A stretch of 64,000 nt of DNA, taken from the NCBI RefSeq assembly GCF_019186805.1, contig NZ_CP066783.1, positions 4,043,501 to 4,107,500 of the forward strand. The letters run 5' to 3'. The stretch comes from Comamonas fluminis. Lineage in GTDB: Bacteria > Pseudomonadota > Gammaproteobacteria > Burkholderiales > Burkholderiaceae_C. Positions within the stretch are counted from its first letter, which is position 1. Each line of letters begins with the position of its first letter. A model generated the notes under the pieces. The model searched no databases, was not told where the DNA came from, and worked only from the letters and a program-made list of their open reading frames with translations. Below are positions 727-63,632 of this stretch, in pieces. The position numbers and the translations under genes are program-made.

Positions 727-849
727 CTCTCAAATACTGGCGCTGCCAAATATCAGAGATGCCGAGCAAGAGCCGCCTCGCGGCGAAGGCATCGTCCCCC
801 TCCGGCGCAAAGCGCCAGAGAGGGGGAAGCGGCAAAGCCGCTCAGGGGG
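727..849 (-). repeat. 3'-end structured repeat, copy A (after ftsZ)
   Basis: First of five copies of a dispersed element of about 100-130 bp. Read on the minus strand it begins CCCCCTGAGCGGC 12 nt after the ftsZ stop. It then has a short hairpin (GCGGC-TTT-GCCGC), a second hairpin whose arms start and end with CCCCC/GGGGG, a third GC-rich palindrome around CGCCGCGAGGCGG, and a tail ending TTTGAGAG. Copies B-E lie at 20892, 30360, 32653 and 63499. It fills most of the ftsZ-lpxC gap. Confidence 0.85.
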
Positions 850-20891: not shown

Positions 20892-21007
20892 CTCTCAAAA
20901 ACTGGCGCAACCCATCTCAGAGACGCCAGGCAAGAGCCGCCTCGCGGCGATGGCGTCGTCCCCCTCCGCGAAGCAGAGAGGGGGAAGCGGCGCAGCCGCT
21001 CAGGGGG
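20892..21007 (-). repeat. 3'-end structured repeat, copy B
   Basis: This copy starts (CCCCCTGAGCGGC on the minus strand) 2 nt after the TAG of the STAS-domain gene. It has the same three-hairpin order as copy A and the same TTTGAGAG tail. Its distal end lies about 30 nt upstream of the hslV heat-shock promoter, so it may insulate hslV from read-through. Confidence 0.85.
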
Positions 21008-21009
21008 AG

Positions 21010-22743
21010 CTAGTCTCGTCGTGGTATCACCTGCGCATGCTCCTGAATGCCCACGACATTGAAGAACACCGCCACCAGTTGGTGCAACTGGCTGAACTGC
21101 AGCACATGCCCCAGCGATTGCATCTCGGCCGCCCAGTTCAGCACCGAACCTGCCGCGGCAAAGTCCATGCGCACCAGACGCGAGCAATCAATGGCAATGG
21201 CTTCGCCCAGCTTGGCCTTTTCCTGCACCTCGGCCAGCCAGGGAAGTGCATCGCCATCAATCACGCCTTGCAGAGCAAAGCGCGGGGCTTTTTCACGCCA
21301 CAAAGCCTCTGGAGGGAGGGAGTCGGGGCCAAAAATTGAATTCTTATAGGCTTCAGTGGCTCTTTGCCCCTCTTGCAGGAACTGGCTGAGCGGCTCCACC
21401 CATGAGGGAGGAGAAAGCTCGTAAGTCACGCAGTAGTCCAGCGCAATCAGCTCGAAATCATCCTGCAAATGCATGAGACGCAGCAAGGCCAGGCGCAGAT
21501 GCCACCAGTCCTGCCCCACATCGCCCTGACCGGACGGGCAGTGCTTGCCCATGACGGACAGAAGGCGTTCATGGCCAGCAAAGATCAGCTCGCCCTTTTC
21601 ATTGCTCCACTGCTGCACGCTTGCCAGCATCAAGGGCAGCACTGCCGCCTCGATCTCTTCCAGCGCGCTCCAGTCCATGGTCCAGGGGCCAGGGCTGCGG
21701 GCCTTGCTTGCCAGCAGCGCCTTGAAGCTGGATTCACCCAGCGAGACAGGCGCCTGCCAGCGAAACCCAATCACTGCTGCAGCGCTGTCGCCAGCCGTAT
21801 CGCGCAACTGGCCTGCTTCCTGCGGCATAGCAAACCATTGCGGTGCCGAGCGACCAAAACGCGAGGCAAAGTCCATGCCTGCATCGTCAAAACGATCCTG
21901 CCAGCCTGCTGCACGGTATAGATCCAGCAACGCCAGCCACAGCGGCAGCTGCGCTGGTGCATCCTGGCTGCGCCGCTCAATCAAGCCCTTGAGGCTCAGT
22001 TCCGCACCTTCCACATCGCCATTGGCAAACACGATGGCGGGCTCTTCCAGCGCAGCATCGTGCTCGAAGCGGATGAACGAAGGCGGCACCATACTGACCG
22101 ATGCGGGGGCAGAGACTTCCGTGGGCGCAAAGCCCGGGGAAAAATCGGTATCGCCACGCATGCTGGTCAGCCCCGGAATTCCGGTGCCCGTAATCAGGGG
22201 GGGCTGCTGATGACCCGGCAGCTTCAAGTCGCTGGGCAAAGCATCGCTGAGCAAGGGAGGGGAGCTGCCAGGCGGTGGGGAGCGAAACGAGGACGGCAGC
22301 GCATTGCCGCCTTCCGGCAATTGCAGCGGCATGGTGGCGGCATCGGAGGCCTGTTTGCCACGCCACCACTGCTGCGCCATCTGCGCTTCGATCTCATCAA
22401 TCTTCTTGATCGTGTCCGCGCGCTCTCCGTGCTCACCGCTGTGCACGGTCTGCATGAAGGACGTACCACCAACAGGAGCGGGCTGAGTCTGCCCGGCGCC
22501 CGGCTTGGCAGACTGCGCCAGTTGCGACTGGCGCAGCTTGCGCAGAGTGTCGAACTCACGTTTGCGCACAAAGTCGTTCTGGCGCTTGCGCTCCAGCATT
22601 TCCTTGAGCGCCTGCTTGCTGTACTGGCTCTCTTCGCTGTCCTGGCTCAGATGATCCAGCTCAGACCAATTGACCGTCGGGTGGCGCACAAAACGCACCA
22701 CCTTGGACAACAAGCCACCAGATTTATTCTCTTCTTTTGCCAT
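21010..22743 (-). CDS. STAS/MlaB-like domain protein of unknown function
   Basis: I recognise no assigned function. The ATG at 22743 is used; the longer frame starts with TTG. The 577-residue protein begins with a charged segment (KVVRFVRHPTVNWSELD, then Lys/Arg-rich helices to about residue 75). A Pro/Gly/Ser-rich linker containing a WWRGK motif follows. The middle part resembles a helical-repeat or degenerate STAS unit (WTMDWSALEEIEAAVLPLM). The C-terminal 90 residues look like an MlaB-type STAS domain (AIAIDCSRLVRMDFAAAGSVL, then VVGIQEHA). No signal peptide or membrane span is visible, so it is probably cytoplasmic. It follows dksA by 46 nt and may be co-transcribed with it. Confidence 0.75.
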   Translation of the reverse strand: MAKEENKSGGLLSKVVRFVRHPTVNWSELDHLSQDSEESQYSKQALKEMLERKRQNDFVRKREFDTLRKLRQSQLAQSAKPGAGQTQPAPVGGTSFMQTVHSGEHGERADTIKKIDEIEAQMAQQWWRGKQASDAATMPLQLPEGGNALPSSFRSPPPGSSPPLLSDALPSDLKLPGHQQPPLITGTGIPGLTSMRGDTDFSPGFAPTEVSAPASVSMVPPSFIRFEHDAALEEPAIVFANGDVEGAELSLKGLIERRSQDAPAQLPLWLALLDLYRAAGWQDRFDDAGMDFASRFGRSAPQWFAMPQEAGQLRDTAGDSAAAVIGFRWQAPVSLGESSFKALLASKARSPGPWTMDWSALEEIEAAVLPLMLASVQQWSNEKGELIFAGHERLLSVMGKHCPSGQGDVGQDWWHLRLALLRLMHLQDDFELIALDYCVTYELSPPSWVEPLSQFLQEGQRATEAYKNSIFGPDSLPPEALWREKAPRFALQGVIDGDALPWLAEVQEKAKLGEAIAIDCSRLVRMDFAAAGSVLNWAAEMQSLGHVLQFSQLHQLVAVFFNVVGIQEHAQVIPRRD

Positions 22744-22789
22744 GGTCAACTACTTTGAAGCCAAGTGCACAGTCAGCGCTTGATGCAAA

Positions 22790-30282: not shown

Positions 30283-30359
30283 AAAAAAACCGCGACAGCA
30301 ATCAAAGATAGGAGAAGGGGGCAACCGAATAAGCACTGACGTATGCCATCGGGGAATCG

Positions 30360-30459
30360 GGGGCGCCCAGCAAGGGCCGCCCCGCAGCGATGGCGCCGTC
30401 CCCCTCCCGCATTGCGAAGCAAAGCGAGAGAGGGGGAAGCCGCGAAGCGGCTCAGGGGG
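30360..30459 (-). repeat. 3'-end structured repeat, copy C
   Basis: Starts CCCCCTGAGCCGCTTCGCGGCTTCC on the minus strand (first 13 bases shared with other copies) 9 nt after the stop of the first Bug gene. The first hairpin has different bases from copies A and B but keeps pairing (GAGCCGC/GCGGCTT). It lies between the Bug gene and the acyl-CoA dehydrogenase gene. Confidence 0.85.
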
Positions 30460-30467
30460 TGACTCGA

Positions 30468-31475
30468 TCAACTCTCTGCAGTAAAGCCGATTTGCTTGAC
30501 CAGCGGCCCCCAGCGCTCAAACTCTGCCTGCTGCGAGCGGGCCATTTCCTCTGGCGTGGAGCTGGTGGCAATCAGGCCCACCACACCCACGCTTTCCTTG
30601 AGCGCATCGCTCTTGAGCGCTGCTGTGATGGCCGCATGGGCACGCTGGCGCACCTCCAGTGGCGTCTTGGCGTTGGCGTAGAAGCCAAACCACTCTTCAG
30701 CCGTCAGGTCGGCAAAGCCCTGCTCGGAAAACGTGGGTACATTGGGCAGATAGGGGTTGCGCTGTGGGCCGCTGGTGGCCAGCACGCGCAGCTTGCCTGC
30801 CTTGTAGTAGCTCAGGAAGTCACCGCTTGGGCCCATGACGGCGGCAATCTGGCCACCGGCCAGATCAGACACCGCAGGCGCCGTGCCGCGATACGGCACA
30901 TGGCTAAGCTTGATGCCCGAGCGCAGGCTGAGCAGCGAGCCCAGCAGGTGCGGCTGCGTACCCGCGCCGGGGCTGCCAAAGCTGGCCTTGTCGAGGTTGT
31001 TCTTGCACCAGGCCAGAAAGTCCTTGAGCGTCTTGACCTCGGCAGGCACAGCCGGGCCTACCGCCAGGCCGTGGTGCATGATGGCACCGATTGAAATCGG
31101 CTCGAAGTCCTTTGCCTGATAGGTCAGCTTGCTATAGATATGGGGGTAGATGGAGAAGGCCGACACCTGCGACAGCACGATGACCGAGCCATCACCCACA
31201 GCGTTGCGCAAGCTTTCCAGCGCGATACGGCCACCAGCGCCGGGCTTGTTTTCCACCACGCCCATGTTCTTGGTATAGCTGGTGCCACCCATTTTTTCGG
31301 CCACACGGCGAGCCACCGAGTCACCCGCGCTGCCTGCCGGGAAGCCGTACAGAATGCGCACCTGCTCCAGCGGGCCACCGCCCTGTGCGTAGGCGCTGCG
31401 GCTGGCGATGCCGCCGAAGGCAGCCAGCGCGGCACCAGCACTCAGGCTTTTGACGAAATTACGACGATCTTGCAT
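30468..31475 (-). CDS. Bug/TctC-type extracytoplasmic solute receptor (copy 1)
   Basis: This is a periplasmic binding protein of the tripartite tricarboxylate transporter family. The 335-residue protein has a twin-arginine-like export signal (MQDRRNFVKSLSAG then ASRSAYAQ as the cleavage region). The mature protein has the family motifs RILYGFPAGSAGDSVARR, NKPGAGGRIALE, and VPYRGTAPAVSDLAGGQI. The start follows AGAGGAGACAAAC. It is about 90 percent identical, with no gaps by my alignment, to the gene directly upstream. No TctA/TctB membrane genes are nearby, as is usual for orphan Bug receptors. Uptake of a carboxylic or aromatic acid for the cluster is inferred. Confidence 0.93.
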   Translation of the reverse strand: MQDRRNFVKSLSAGAALAAFGGIASRSAYAQGGGPLEQVRILYGFPAGSAGDSVARRVAEKMGGTSYTKNMGVVENKPGAGGRIALESLRNAVGDGSVIVLSQVSAFSIYPHIYSKLTYQAKDFEPISIGAIMHHGLAVGPAVPAEVKTLKDFLAWCKNNLDKASFGSPGAGTQPHLLGSLLSLRSGIKLSHVPYRGTAPAVSDLAGGQIAAVMGPSGDFLSYYKAGKLRVLATSGPQRNPYLPNVPTFSEQGFADLTAEEWFGFYANAKTPLEVRQRAHAAITAALKSDALKESVGVVGLIATSSTPEEMARSQQAEFERWGPLVKQIGFTAES

Positions 31476-31584: not shown

Positions 31585-32592
31585 TCAGGAGTCGCCGGTA
31601 AAGCCGATTTGCTTGACCAATGCGCCCCAGCGCTCGTACTCAGCCTGCTGCGAGCGCGCCATTTCCTCGGGGGTTGAGCTGGTAGCAATCAGGCCCACCA
31701 CCCCCAGACTTTCCTTGAGCGCATCGCTCTTGAGAGCCGTCGTGATCGCCGCATGGGCACGCTGGCGCACCTCTGCAGGTGTCTTGGCATTGGCATAGAA
31801 GCCAAACCACTCCTCAGCTGTCAGATCGGCAAAACCCTGCTCGGCAAACGTGGGAACACTCTGCAGATAGGGATTGCGCTGTGGGCCACTGGTGGCCAGT
31901 ACACGCAGCTTGCCCGCCTTGTGATAACTCAGATAGTCGCCGCAAGGGCCCATGATGGCGGCAATCTGGCCGCCAGCCACGTCCGAGACCCCGGGCGCCA
32001 TCCCCCGATACGGCGCATGGCTGAGCTTGACGCCCGAGCGCAGGCTCAGCAGCGCGCCCAGCAAATGGGGCTGGCTGCCTGCACCGGGGCTGCCAAAGCT
32101 GGCCTTATCGGGGTTGCTCTTGCACCATGCCAGAAAATCCTTGAGCGTCTTGACATCGGCAGGCACAGCAGGCCCTACGGCCAGACCGTGGTGCATGATG
32201 GCGCCAATCGAAATCGGCTCGAAGTCCTTGGCCTGATAGCTGAGCTTGCTATAGATATGGGGATAGATGGAAAAAGCCGAGACCTGTGACAGCGCAATCA
32301 CCGAGCCATCGCTCGCGGCGTTGCGCAAGCTTTCCAGCGCGATGCGGCCACCGGCGCCGGGCTTGTTTTCCACCACGCCCATGTTCTTGGTGTAGCTGCT
32401 GCCTCCGATTTTTTCAGACACACGGCGCGCAACCGAATCTCCCGCGCTCCCCGCAGGGAAGCCGTACAGAATGCGCACCTGATCCAGCGGACCAGCGCCC
32501 TGTGCATAGGCGCTGCGGCTGGCGATGCCGCCGAACGCTGCCAGCGCAGCGCCAGCACTCAGGCTTTTGACGAAATTGCGACGACCTTGCAT
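31585..32592 (-). CDS. Bug/TctC-type extracytoplasmic solute receptor (copy 2)
   Basis: This is a tandem paralogue of the gene downstream. The ATG at 32592 is chosen because it follows GAGGAG and lines up with the start of copy 1; the longer frame reaches into a repeat. The 335-residue protein has the same signal (MQGRRNFVKSLSAG) and the same motifs. By my count it has about 34 substitutions against copy 1, mostly conservative, spread along the protein, including S to C in MGPCGD and Y to H in SYHKAGK. The two may bind related ligands such as differently substituted aromatic acids; that is inference. Confidence 0.93.
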   Translation of the reverse strand: MQGRRNFVKSLSAGAALAAFGGIASRSAYAQGAGPLDQVRILYGFPAGSAGDSVARRVSEKIGGSSYTKNMGVVENKPGAGGRIALESLRNAASDGSVIALSQVSAFSIYPHIYSKLSYQAKDFEPISIGAIMHHGLAVGPAVPADVKTLKDFLAWCKSNPDKASFGSPGAGSQPHLLGALLSLRSGVKLSHAPYRGMAPGVSDVAGGQIAAIMGPCGDYLSYHKAGKLRVLATSGPQRNPYLQSVPTFAEQGFADLTAEEWFGFYANAKTPAEVRQRAHAAITTALKSDALKESLGVVGLIATSSTPEEMARSQQAEYERWGALVKQIGFTGDS

Positions 32593-32652
32593 GACTTGTC
32601 TCCTCTTAGGAATAGGCGGACTCTGCGGTCCTGTGAAATCAATCAATACCTG

Positions 32653-32786
32653 TCTCAATCTTTGGCGCCGCCCCGGCTCTGGCACTCTCCAAGCCAGAGA
32701 CACCAAGCAAGGGCCGCCCCGCAGCGATGGTGTCGTCCCCCTCAGGGGGAAGGCGCGGGGCCGCCCAGGCGGAGCGCCTCAGGGGG
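32653..32786 (-). repeat. 3'-end structured repeat, copy D
   Basis: Starts CCCCCTGAGGCGC on the minus strand 3 nt after the SDR stop. The first stem is longer than in the other copies and enclosed by GGCGC/GCGCC arms, and the second is CCCCCTGAGGGGG. The tail GCCAAAGATTGAGACA corresponds to GCCAGTTTTTGAGAG in copy B. It lies between the SDR gene and the second Bug gene. Confidence 0.85.
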
Positions 32787-32789
32787 CAC

Positions 32790-33557
32790 TCATCTAGGAC
32801 TCATCCGCAGCGCCCCATCCAGACGAATCACTTCGCCATTGAGGTGATCGTTGTGCACGATATGTACGGCCAGATCGGCAAACTCCGAAGGCTTGCCCAG
32901 TCGCGACGGGAAGGGAATCGATGCTGCCAGCGACTGCTGCACAGGCTCAGGCAATTCCTGCATCAGTGGCGTGGCAAACAGCCCCGGCGCCACGGTGCAG
33001 ACACGAATGCCGTGCTGGGCCAGGTCGCGTGCCATGGGCAGCGTCATGCCCACCAGCCCACCCTTGGATGCGCTGTACGCCTGCTGGCCCACCTGTCCAT
33101 CAAACGCGGCCACCGATGCGGTGTAGAGAATCACGCCACGCGCACCGTCTTCCAGACCGGGCAGCTTGGCGCAACGTGCGGCAAACAGGCGGGTCATGTT
33201 GTAGCTGCCGATCAGGTTGACGCGAATCACGCGCTCAAAATCTTCCAGCGGCGCGGGCTCGCCATCACGGCCAATCACGCGCTTGGCCGTGCCAATGCCA
33301 GCCACATTCATCAAAATGCGCGCATCGCCGCCCCAGTGCGAGCGGATGGCATCCAGCGCCGCTGTCACGCTGGATGTGTCGCAGATATCGCATTCCAGCG
33401 CCAGCCCGCCAATGTCCGCAGCCACGGCTTTGGCCTTGTCCAGTTGGCGGTCCAGCACCGCCACTCTGGCGCCCGCAGCGGCCAGCGCCCGGGCCGTGGC
33501 CTCGCCCAGCCCGGAGGCGCCGCCGGTGACAATGGCAATCTGTTCCTGAACTTGCAT
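32790..33557 (-). CDS. SDR family oxidoreductase (3-hydroxyacyl-CoA dehydrogenase-like)
   Basis: This is an NAD(P)-dependent short-chain dehydrogenase of 255 residues. The nucleotide loop is VTGGASGLGEATARAL (about residues 10-25), with DR after the second strand suggesting NAD preference. The catalytic residues are in SVAAFDGQVGQQAYSASKGG (Ser, Tyr, Lys). The overall pattern resembles HSD10/type II 3-hydroxyacyl-CoA dehydrogenases. With the crotonase and acyl-CoA dehydrogenase of the cluster it would supply the third beta-oxidation step. It lies 44 nt downstream of fcs. Confidence 0.9.
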   Translation of the reverse strand: MQVQEQIAIVTGGASGLGEATARALAAAGARVAVLDRQLDKAKAVAADIGGLALECDICDTSSVTAALDAIRSHWGGDARILMNVAGIGTAKRVIGRDGEPAPLEDFERVIRVNLIGSYNMTRLFAARCAKLPGLEDGARGVILYTASVAAFDGQVGQQAYSASKGGLVGMTLPMARDLAQHGIRVCTVAPGLFATPLMQELPEPVQQSLAASIPFPSRLGKPSEFADLAVHIVHNDHLNGEVIRLDGALRMSPR

Positions 33558-39062: not shown

Positions 39063-39075
39063 CATGGGAATAAGT

Positions 39076-39413
39076 GTGAAGTGCGCCGATAAGCCGGATT
39101 CTGTGCACAACGGTTGCCCGCCATGTGACCGCCATTAATCTTGGCCATCAGTCGCCTGATGGCTCGGTGCTACCTACCCGCACACTCCGGGGGCCCCGTC
39201 AACGTGTGCCTACTTGGTATTGCTGCGCGTAGAGATTGCCCGTTTCACCCCCGGTGGTCTACCTTGCGGCACTCCCCCGGGACTCGTCTCTGTTGCTCTG
39301 ATCCTCACCTCACGGTGGACAGCTGTTAGCTGCTACGCCGCCCTATGCAGTCCGGACGTTCCTCCAGTACGGCTTTTCAGCACTTGTACCAGCGGCGGTC
39401 TGGCGCACTTCAC
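39076..39413 (-). ncRNA. rnpB: RNase P RNA (M1-like, type A)
   Basis: This is the catalytic RNA of RNase P, which matures tRNA 5' ends. On the minus strand the 5' end GTGAAGTGCGCC pairs perfectly with the 3' end GGCGCACTTCAC, forming helix P1. Diagnostic conserved blocks are GAGGAACGTCCGGAC, CCGTGAGGTGAGGATCAG nearby, GAGTGCCGCAAGG, GGTGAAACGGGCAATC, GCACCGAGCC and the 3' CAGAATCCGGCTTATCGG. Length is about 338 nt. No protein is coded in the region. The ends are set from P1 pairing and could shift by several bases. Confidence 0.97.
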
Positions 39414-62540: not shown

Positions 62541-63506
62541 ATGAAGACCCAATCGTCCCCACCTGTGTCCAAGCGCTTGACGCAAGCCACCCTGATCGGC
62601 CTGCCCACCGATGTCGGCGCCTCGCGTCTGGGCGCAGCCATGGGGCCTGACGCACTGCGCGTGGCCCAGCTGGCACCAGCGCTGGAGCGGCTTGGCGTGC
62701 GCGTCAACGATCTTGGCAATCTATCCGGGCCACCCAATCCGCGTGGTGCACGCGATATGCAGGGCCTGCGTAATCTGGCGGAGTGCCTGCGCTGGAATCA
62801 GATGGCGCACGATGCCGTGCTGCAGGTGCTGGAGCAAAACCGCCTGCCCATCATGCTGGGCGGTGACCATACGCTGGCCACAGGCTCCATCAGCGCCATT
62901 GCCAGACATTGCCGCACCACCGGCAAGCAATTGCGGGTGCTGTGGCTTGATGCCCATTCGGACTGCAACACGCCAGCAAGTTCCCCCACCGGCAATCTGC
63001 ACGGCATGCCCGTCTCCAGCCTGTGCGGGCTGGGCCCGTCGGAACTGGCCTCTCTGTCGGGCAGTACACCCGCCCTTCCCGCATCTGCTTTTTGCCAGAT
63101 TGGCCTGCGCAGCGTGGACGAAAGCGAAAAGCACATGATTCGCGAGCTGGGGCTTGAGGTCTATGACATGCGAGCCATTGACGAGCTGGGCATGCGCGAA
63201 GTCATGCGCCGTGCGCTGACTGGCCTGTTTGACGAAGACGGCAAGGATATTCACCTGCATCTGAGCTTTGATGTGGATTTTCTGGACCCCGACATTGCCC
63301 CCGGCACCGGAACCCCTGTACGCGGCGGCCCCACCTACCGCGAAGCGCAGCTGTGCATGGAAATGATTGCCGACACGGGGCGCCTGGCCTCACTCGATAT
63401 TGTGGAACTGAACCCTGCGCTGGACATACGCAACCAGACCGCAGAGCTGGTGGTGGACCTAGTGCAAAGCCTGTTTGGGCAAAGTGTTTTGATACGTTCC
63501 CCCTGA
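62541..63506 (+). CDS. rocF: Arginase
   Basis: Arginase splits arginine to ornithine and urea with two manganese ions. The 321-residue protein has the metal motifs GGDHTLATGS, WLDAHSDCNTP, and SFDVDFLDPDIAPGTGTPV, and SLDIVELNPALD near the end, all classic for the family. The last codons read VLIRSP and the stop TGA lies inside a structured dispersed repeat (CCCCCTGAG), so the repeat supplies the final codons. It is translationally close to the cyclodeaminase gene upstream. The gene product feeds ornithine to it. Confidence 0.93.
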   Translation: MKTQSSPPVSKRLTQATLIGLPTDVGASRLGAAMGPDALRVAQLAPALERLGVRVNDLGNLSGPPNPRGARDMQGLRNLAECLRWNQMAHDAVLQVLEQNRLPIMLGGDHTLATGSISAIARHCRTTGKQLRVLWLDAHSDCNTPASSPTGNLHGMPVSSLCGLGPSELASLSGSTPALPASAFCQIGLRSVDESEKHMIRELGLEVYDMRAIDELGMREVMRRALTGLFDEDGKDIHLHLSFDVDFLDPDIAPGTGTPVRGGPTYREAQLCMEMIADTGRLASLDIVELNPALDIRNQTAELVVDLVQSLFGQSVLIRSP

Positions 63507-63600
63507 GGCGCTTTGCGCCTTCCCCCAGAGGGGGACGACAGCATCGCTGCGGGGCGGCCCTTGCTTGCTGCCTCTGGGTTGTACCTCGCCGGTTTCAGGC
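63499..63600 (+). repeat. 3'-end structured repeat, copy E, overlapping the arginase stop
   Basis: Starts CCCCCTGAGGCGC on the plus strand, so it is inverted relative to copies A-D but has the same orientation relative to its gene. The first hairpin is GGCGC-TTT-GCGCC, the second CCCCC-AGA-GGGGG style, then the CATCGCTGCGGGGCGGCCC block shared with copy D. The arginase TGA is part of the element. Confidence 0.85.
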
Positions 63601-63602
63601 AT

Positions 63603-63632
63603 AAAAAAGGCGCTCTTTCGAGCGCCTTTTTT
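63603..63632. terminator. Bidirectional terminator between arginase and the ABC ATPase gene
   Basis: GGCGCTC and GAGCGCC with a 4-nt loop form the stem, flanked by six A and six T, which allows termination from both convergent genes. Confidence 0.93.

What the first reader, a model, noticed from the sequence alone, without database searches (positions are those of the whole stretch)
63499..63600. A structured repeat family that sits directly at gene 3' ends, one copy supplying the stop codon
Five copies (727-849, 20892-21007, 30360-30459, 32653-32786, 63499-63600) begin 0-12 nt after a stop codon and always in the same orientation relative to the gene; in arginase the CCCCCTGAG core contains the TGA itself. 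Stems keep pairing while bases change (GCGGC/GCCGC, GGCGC/GCGCC), which points to selection on RNA structure. None sits in a 5' region in the same orientation. It may be a comamonad element that acts as terminator, 3' stabiliser or a protein-binding site.
Basis: partly seen in the sequence, partly recalled or inferred. Interest (0 to 1): 0.7.

Follow-up and report, generated by a model that had tools for sequence, protein, structure and literature searches.

The report
Mobile repeat locked behind stop codons
A roughly 100-base, hairpin-rich repeat present in 150 or more copies in this bacterium sits, almost always in one orientation, directly behind the stop codons of genes; it looks more like a mobile repeat that lands at gene ends than a conserved RNA switch.

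Summary
Of 155 distinct copies examined, 132 start -8 to +15 nt from a called same-strand stop codon (6.8% expected at random intergenic positions of the window). In syntenic blocks of six genomes it is 31 of 31. Relatives with other hairpins on the same scaffold occur in 15 other named Burkholderiales genera.
The stems covary strongly, but this does not point to RNA selection: G.U is no commoner than A.C in the stems (19:22 in 118 own copies; RNase P control 56:12), and near-invariant stem and unpaired columns drift equally (3.1% each). No copy of 143 tested holds an intrinsic terminator; 98 of 155 precede a co-directional gene.
Best reading: a non-autonomous mobile palindromic repeat, REP-like and probably the published Beta-proteobacterial repeat element (BRE), inserted with fixed polarity behind stop codons. 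What mobilises it is unknown. Effects on the terminating ribosome remain possible. Searches showed no report of this locking in comamonads.

The parts
735..849 (-). copy 1, starting 10 nt after the ftsZ stop (gene 860-2065 -); long apical extension of hairpin 2
   Evidence: (86.7 bits); present in all six syntenic genomes
20900..21007 (-). copy 2, starting 2 nt after the stop of a STAS-domain gene (21010-22749 -)
   Evidence: 90.2 bits; orthologous copy in G062 and G072, decayed by my reading in G019 and G021, gone in G030
30341..30459 (-). copy 3, starting 8 nt after the stop of a TctC-type receptor gene (30468-31475 -)
   Evidence: 76.9 bits; shared by 15 congeners with changed stems, not seen in 6 more distant ones
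32677..32786 (-). copy 4, starting 3 nt after the stop of a short-chain dehydrogenase gene (32790-33557 -), in front of a second TctC gene
   Evidence: 95.0 bits; absent from G017, G028, G002 and G003, decayed in G016 and G035
63499..63594 (+). copy 5, the compact form, behind arginase
   Evidence: 106.4 bits
63499..63506 (+). CCCCCTGA: 5' end of copy 5, overlapping the end of arginase with its TGA stop (63504-63506)
63507..63519 (+). hairpin 1 (GGCGC TTT GCGCC)
63521..63535 (+). hairpin 2 (TCCCCC/GGGGGA with a short loop; 12-31 nt apical inserts in many other copies)
63537..63572 (+). hairpin 3 (GACRGC...GCYGYC with inner GNG/CNC and a TT bulge; one A.C mismatch in this copy)
63573..63594 (+). 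loosely conserved tail, in most copies ending near GCCAGTTT
63603..63632 (+). native intrinsic terminator of arginase, left in place downstream; also present in several element-free orthologs

Best explanation
The element is a non-autonomous, dispersed palindromic repeat (about 96 nt in compact form, up to about 134 nt with apical inserts), probably a branch of the Beta-proteobacterial repeat element (BRE) and analogous to REP sequences. SHOWN: scaffold C5-TGAG, hairpin 1, C5-loop-G5 hairpin 2, a bulged hairpin 3, and a tail ending near GCCAGTTTT; 150 or more chromosomal copies; position locked -8 to +11 nt from stop codons in the gene's orientation for most copies; presence, absence and decay at orthologous sites; no intrinsic terminator inside. 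INFERRED: copies spread by a trans-acting DNA mechanism that recognises the fold as a DNA hairpin and inserts with fixed polarity immediately behind stop codons (or insertions elsewhere are quickly lost). Pairing is kept by copying from paired source elements and by DNA-level events (template switching, exchange between copies), not by selection on the mRNA fold of each resident copy. Once inserted, a copy is transcribed as the first part of the 3' UTR, sometimes carries the stop, and may mildly affect the terminating ribosome or 3' decay.
For: Copy number: 150 of 150 scored candidates accepted, none on the small contig. Position: 132 of 155 with a called same-strand stop at -8..+15 (130 at -8..+11); 139 of 155 by a caller-free test (ORF of at least 60 aa) against 31 of 155 for the opposite strand at the 3' end; random intergenic expectation 6.8%. 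Distances found are -8, 0 to 11, and 14. 31 of 31 in synteny blocks, and a 32nd, weaker copy also abuts a stop. 21 of 22 scored copies in other genera of the family. Mobility: G072 has a copy between two co-directional genes where G062 has a 24-nt gap; copy 2 and copy 4 sites are polymorphic with decayed remnants; G002 arginase keeps a CCCCCTGA stub and has an element 12 nt on. DNA level: GU:AC 19:22 against 56:12 in RNase P, Fisher p 1e-4; drift 0.0308 in stem and 0.0312 in unpaired near-invariant columns. Not a terminator: 0 of 143. Template switching as a source of compensatory changes is published (PMC8794818; abstract and start of introduction seen).
Against: No mobilising enzyme was found; only Y1_Tnp was searched for. 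No target-site duplication or strong target motif was seen; only C at -2 in 51% and A at -1 in 45% of 74 copies. The copy-3 site is shared by 15 congeners, so some copies are old and kept, as a useful element would be. Empty sites do not give clean insertion edges. The GU:AC test uses paralogous, non-independent copies and, for A5 and A6, alignments fitted to the model. Two of five covariation measures do not beat shuffles in A4 and one does not in A3.
Confidence: 0.6

Rival explanations
1. Selected 3'-UTR regulator: hairpins within about 15 nt of the stop stall or slow the terminating ribosome and lower or tune expression, as reported for E. coli REPs; position and polarity are kept by selection.
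For: 132 of 155 copies lie within the 15-nt range in which E. coli REPs are reported to act (passages of PMC12306157, citing an earlier study not read here). Fixed polarity; the copy-3 site kept in 15 congeners; a copy behind ftsZ in all six syntenic genomes.
Against: No wobble preference and no stem constraint in resident copies. Orthologous copies decay or vanish at copy-2 and copy-4 sites. Weak fold z-scores for 3 of 5 window copies.
Confidence: 0.25
2. Transcription terminator or Rho-related 3' end former that replaces or backs up native terminators.
For: Hairpins at gene 3' ends; 45 of 155 copies lie before a convergent gene; the tail ends in a short T run.
Against: 0 of 143 copies hold a hairpin followed by a T-tract by my own strict test. 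98 of 155 precede a co-directional gene. Native terminators persist behind copies.
Confidence: 0.08
3. Duplex protein-binding site (gyrase or nucleoid protein, as recalled for E. coli BIMEs) that relieves supercoiling behind genes.
For: High copy number, all 150 listed copies on the large contig, downstream of genes, covariation without wobble preference.
Against: Strict polarity and 0-11 nt spacing are not needed by such a site; no binding data.
Confidence: 0.05

Closest known systems
Beta-proteobacterial repeat element (BRE; Hot et al. 2011, PMC3110155)
   Same: About 90 bp, GC-rich, dispersed in Alcaligenaceae and Comamonadaceae (Polaromonas, Delftia, Acidovorax, Rhodoferax), tandem arrays at some loci, mobile-like. 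Tandem arrays also seen here in unnamed f4 genomes.
   Different: That paper counts at most 29 copies per genome at its threshold, describes no stop-codon locking, and says repeats are usually intergenic, some overlapping ORF ends and some within genes. Its sequence is not in the text, so identity was not tested.
REP elements (GTAG and CGTC families; Di Nocera et al. 2013, PMC3733652)
   Same: Many-copy palindromes, often close (<20 bp) to gene 3' ends; GTAG termini that often provide a stop codon.
   Different: REPs are 20-40 bp with a GTAG or CGTC head and often paired head to head; here a three-hairpin polar unit of about 96 nt whose conserved 5' end is CCCCCTGAG.
REP-RAYT systems (Nunvar et al. 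2010, PMC2817692)
   Same: A single Y1_Tnp gene exists in this genome.
   Different: It is not flanked by the element and does not co-vary with it.
Intrinsic terminators
   Same: GC-rich hairpins behind genes.
   Different: No T-tract after any stem in 143 copies.

Membership tests
BRE | sequence identity >70% to the B. pertussis consensus copy | not testable with these tools
   Sequence is only in a figure and the supplement; the text gives coordinates
BRE | length about 75-91 bp, GC-rich, mostly intergenic, chromosomal | tested here: met
   Model of 96 positions, GC 0.60-0.77 in own and congener copies; large contig only. Longer forms reach 134 nt, outside the BRE range
BRE | tandem, variable-number arrays | tested here: inconclusive
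   Arrays in G168 and G306 and one Variovorax locus, L256; in the list the closest pair is about 150 nt apart in opposite orientation
BRE | copy between lexA and its neighbour, as in three Bordetella genomes | tested here: inconclusive
   Three f4 genomes: no element beside lexA; they are unnamed and may not be Bordetella
REP (GTAG/CGTC) | 20-40 bp palindrome with GTAG or CGTC head | tested here: not met
   Conserved 5' end CCCCCTGAG, about 96 nt, three hairpins
REP-RAYT | RAYT gene flanked by two inverted copies | tested here: not met
   No element match in the 3.3 kb held around the only Y1_Tnp gene, even at E 1000
Intrinsic terminator | hairpin followed directly by a T-tract | tested here: not met
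   0 of 143 copies with score of at least 45
Rfam RNA families | match to a curated model | tested here: not met
   Only RNase P in the window at gathering cut-offs; in seven loci up to E 0.5 only one hit, away from the element
RNA-selected cis element | wobble-tolerant covariation on the transcribed strand | tested here: not met
   GU:AC 19:22 against 56:12 in RNase P

The most novel reading that the evidence does not exclude
A Burkholderiales mobile DNA whose insertion is coupled to translation termination or to the DNA just behind stop codons, so that copies land with fixed polarity 0-11 nt after the stop and can even donate the stop, with hairpins maintained at the DNA level.
Probability: 0.25. 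Interest if true: 0.85.

Novelty: new variant of a known kind. Interest (0 to 1): 0.55.

Why it matters
Strict polarity and spacing to the stop codon in more than 130 of 155 copies is unusual for a dispersed repeat: for E. coli REPs one survey puts 446 of 4,072 within 15 nt of a stop, and the earlier study it cites 260 of 496. If the locking reflects insertion, it implies an unknown stop-codon-directed mobile process; if it reflects selection, it is a genome-wide 3'-UTR control layer. The GU against AC test with an RNase P control also shows how strong covariation can mislead: paired changes alone would have been read as a functional RNA.

Tried and rejected
RAYT as mobiliser: one Y1_Tnp gene, not flanked, no co-variation. 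Rfam: nothing at the element. Plasmids: one weak partial hit in a Comamonas plasmid; phages: none. Intrinsic terminator: not supported (13 of 143 copies have one within 120 nt downstream). First gene caller chose antisense ORFs and was replaced. Pseudoknot idea for the GNG/CNC pairs: dropped by reasoning only, the loops would be too short. BRE identity through the lexA neighbourhood: no result. Integron attC: considered from memory, not tested. R2 (Variovorax-type right half) hits 9 of 300 order genomes but not the own genome (in one search copy 4 alone gives 20 bits), so the two types are linked by scaffold and position, not by one model; 7 of 82 pattern matches could not be placed, 13 of the 75 placed had no ORF of at least 100 aa ending nearby (in some the second C5 run was taken as start), and the opposite-strand control gave 29 of 75, so that set is weaker evidence than the own genome; 22 of 30 loci scored (2 mislocated, 6 unlabelled); the one miss, L229, has TGA beside the element but no called gene there; 16 of 155 fail the caller-free test; four look like start-register errors (L149, L151, L155, one in L136), two have a stop at 16 and 21 nt, ten remain as exceptions. 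RNase P control: 23 of the 30 fetched loci used, seven longer ones left out.

Full report
CHECK OF THE OBSERVATION. The five copies are one family. A covariance model R1, built from 27 own-genome copies, finds these five in the window at 76.9 to 106.4 bits; the next hit has 17.3 bits. In the whole genome (4.9 Mb) it accepts 150 of 150 scored candidates, all on the large contig; the number is a lower bound because scoring stops at 150.

POSITION AND POLARITY. Flanks of these matches were fetched and genes called with a codon model trained on the window. An nhmmer search of the held sequence gave 155 distinct copies. 132 of 155 start -8 to +15 nt from a called same-strand stop; a caller-free test (same-strand ORF of at least 60 aa) gives 139 of 155, the mirrored control on the opposite strand at the 3' end gives 31 of 155, and a random intergenic base and strand in the window gives 6.8%. 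In the caller-free test the distances are 0 to 11 nt (122 copies), -8, where the TGA of CCCCCTGA is the stop (15 copies), and 14 (two copies). Of the 16 misses four look like start-register errors, two have a stop at 16 and 21 nt, and ten remain; misses by score quartile, best first, are 5, 1, 0 and 10, so the least diverged copies are already mostly at stops but not more strictly than the middle ones. In 80-kb syntenic blocks of five congeners plus the window, 31 of 31 copies found by nhmmer lie -8 to +10 nt from a same-strand stop; one weaker copy that only the model found (L194:6227-6347) starts directly behind a stop.

CONTEXT. 98 of 155 copies are followed by a co-directional gene, 63 of these with a called start within 60 nt of the element end, and 45 by a convergent gene (17 of the called starts overlap the element and are probably called too early). 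In G072 a copy lies between two co-directional genes that in G062 are 24 nt apart without an element. No copy of 143 contains a hairpin plus T-tract; 13 of 143 have one within 120 nt downstream.

STRUCTURE. RNAalifold gives three hairpins, with compensatory changes in 8 of 22 pairs. Pair counting: 97.6% of cells paired, covariation score 0.239 against 0.080 in shuffles, 0 of 500 as high; the number of pair types does not exceed shuffles. The Variovorax-type alignment behaves alike on cells paired and score, but not on pairs with double change or pair types. Of 105 copies that a regular expression could place, 49 have a 1-5 nt loop in hairpin 2 and 56 an insert of 12-31 nt; one insert module occurs in 20 copies at different loci. 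MFE z-scores of the five window copies, in the order 5, 4, 2, 1, 3: -0.33, -1.54, -1.14, -2.98, -4.43.

IS IT RNA SELECTION? If the mRNA fold were kept, G.U should be tolerated more than A.C. In 118 own-genome copies (A5) it is 19 against 22; in A6 21:39, of which 35 further own copies 7:14 and congeners 14:25; in the Variovorax-type A4 (hairpin 2 left out) 3:11; in the sequence-only alignment A3, a subset of the own copies, 1:7. RNase P RNA from 23 genomes of the same bacterial family, aligned by MAFFT and folded by RNAalifold, gives 56:12 at pairs whose commonest state is Watson-Crick (Fisher p 1e-4 for A5 alone, 3e-9 for A5+A6+A4). Near-invariant stem columns (32 of 44) differ from their majority in 3.08% of copies, near-invariant unpaired core columns (22 of 27) in 3.12%. 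So resident copies drift without visible regard to pairing, and the paired changes probably predate insertion or arise by DNA events such as template switching (PMC8794818; abstract and start of introduction seen). Limits: copies are not independent, and A5 and A6 were fitted to the model.

ORTHOLOGS. The copy-3 site carries an element in 15 congeners, with changed stems, and none in six more distant ones; at copy 4, G017, G028, G002 and G003 have other sequence and G016 and G035 hold what I read as decayed copies. Copy 1 is in all six syntenic genomes; copy 2 is intact in three, decayed in G019 and G021, gone in G030. At arginase (30 orthologs), own and four congeners have the element or its remains and end (S/T)P-stop; three element-free congeners also end P-stop, the rest end otherwise; G002 keeps the CCCCCTGA stub with an element 12 nt on. 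I read this as gain, decay and renewed insertion at one spot.

RANGE. R1 matches 49 of 53 genomes of the genus (own included), 17 of 19 other genera of the family, and 2 of 48 genomes of other families, both weakly. Searching twelve of these genomes again gave 30 loci; 22 were scored and 21 start -8 to +13 nt from a same-strand stop. Some genera have a different hairpin 1 and a CCGGC-AAA-GCCGG tip in hairpin 3 on the same scaffold. Model R2 of this type hits 9 of 300 order genomes, three of them in family f4; there 16 of 26 copies have an ORF of at least 80 aa ending 19-45 nt before the R2 hit, that is within about 25 nt of the element start, and the other 10 lie behind another copy or part of one (the last by my reading).

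WHAT IT IS LIKE. BRE (PMC3110155; section on the element read in full) matches in size, hosts, GC content and tandem arrays, but its sequence is not in the text. REPs (PMC3733652; abstract, two sections and passages) often lie near gene 3' ends and can supply stops. E. coli REPs lower translation only within 15 nt of the stop according to passages of PMC12306157. RAYT genes are said to be always flanked by REPs (PMC2817692; passages); the one Y1_Tnp gene here is not flanked by the element, and presence of Y1_Tnp does not track it across 120 genomes.

CONCLUSION. A REP-like, probably BRE-class, mobile palindromic repeat with unusually strict stop-codon locking. Insertion machinery and any effect on translation or mRNA decay are not shown. 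Searches showed no report of this locking for Comamonadaceae; the library holds open-access papers only.

Noticed in passing
30471-31475 and 31588-32706 (-): Tandem TctC-type receptor genes (PF03401), 87% identical over 300 nt; one is followed by copy 3, the other preceded by copy 4.
   Followed up: partly
39074-39411 (-): RNase P RNA (RF00010); relatives of it were used as covariation control.
   Followed up: yes
L009:1471-2178: Single Y1_Tnp gene with a 7-bp inverted repeat just upstream; that hairpin pattern is found nowhere else in the own-genome sequence held.
   Followed up: partly
L359 (G002 arginase): A CCCCCTGA stub as stop codon and an element 12 nt downstream: apparent repeated insertion at one stop codon.
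   Followed up: partly
L430 (G306:C15): Four tandem copies with a 124-nt period behind one gene in an unnamed Burkholderiales genome.
   Followed up: no
own-genome copies (L024, L027, L029 and others): Apical module TCTCTACGCGCT... shared by 20 copies at different loci, suggesting exchange between copies or subfamily spread.
   Followed up: partly
L259: A copy of the Variovorax-type repeat in a contig labelled Stagnimonas, recalled as a gammaproteobacterium; misbinning or transfer.
   Followed up: no
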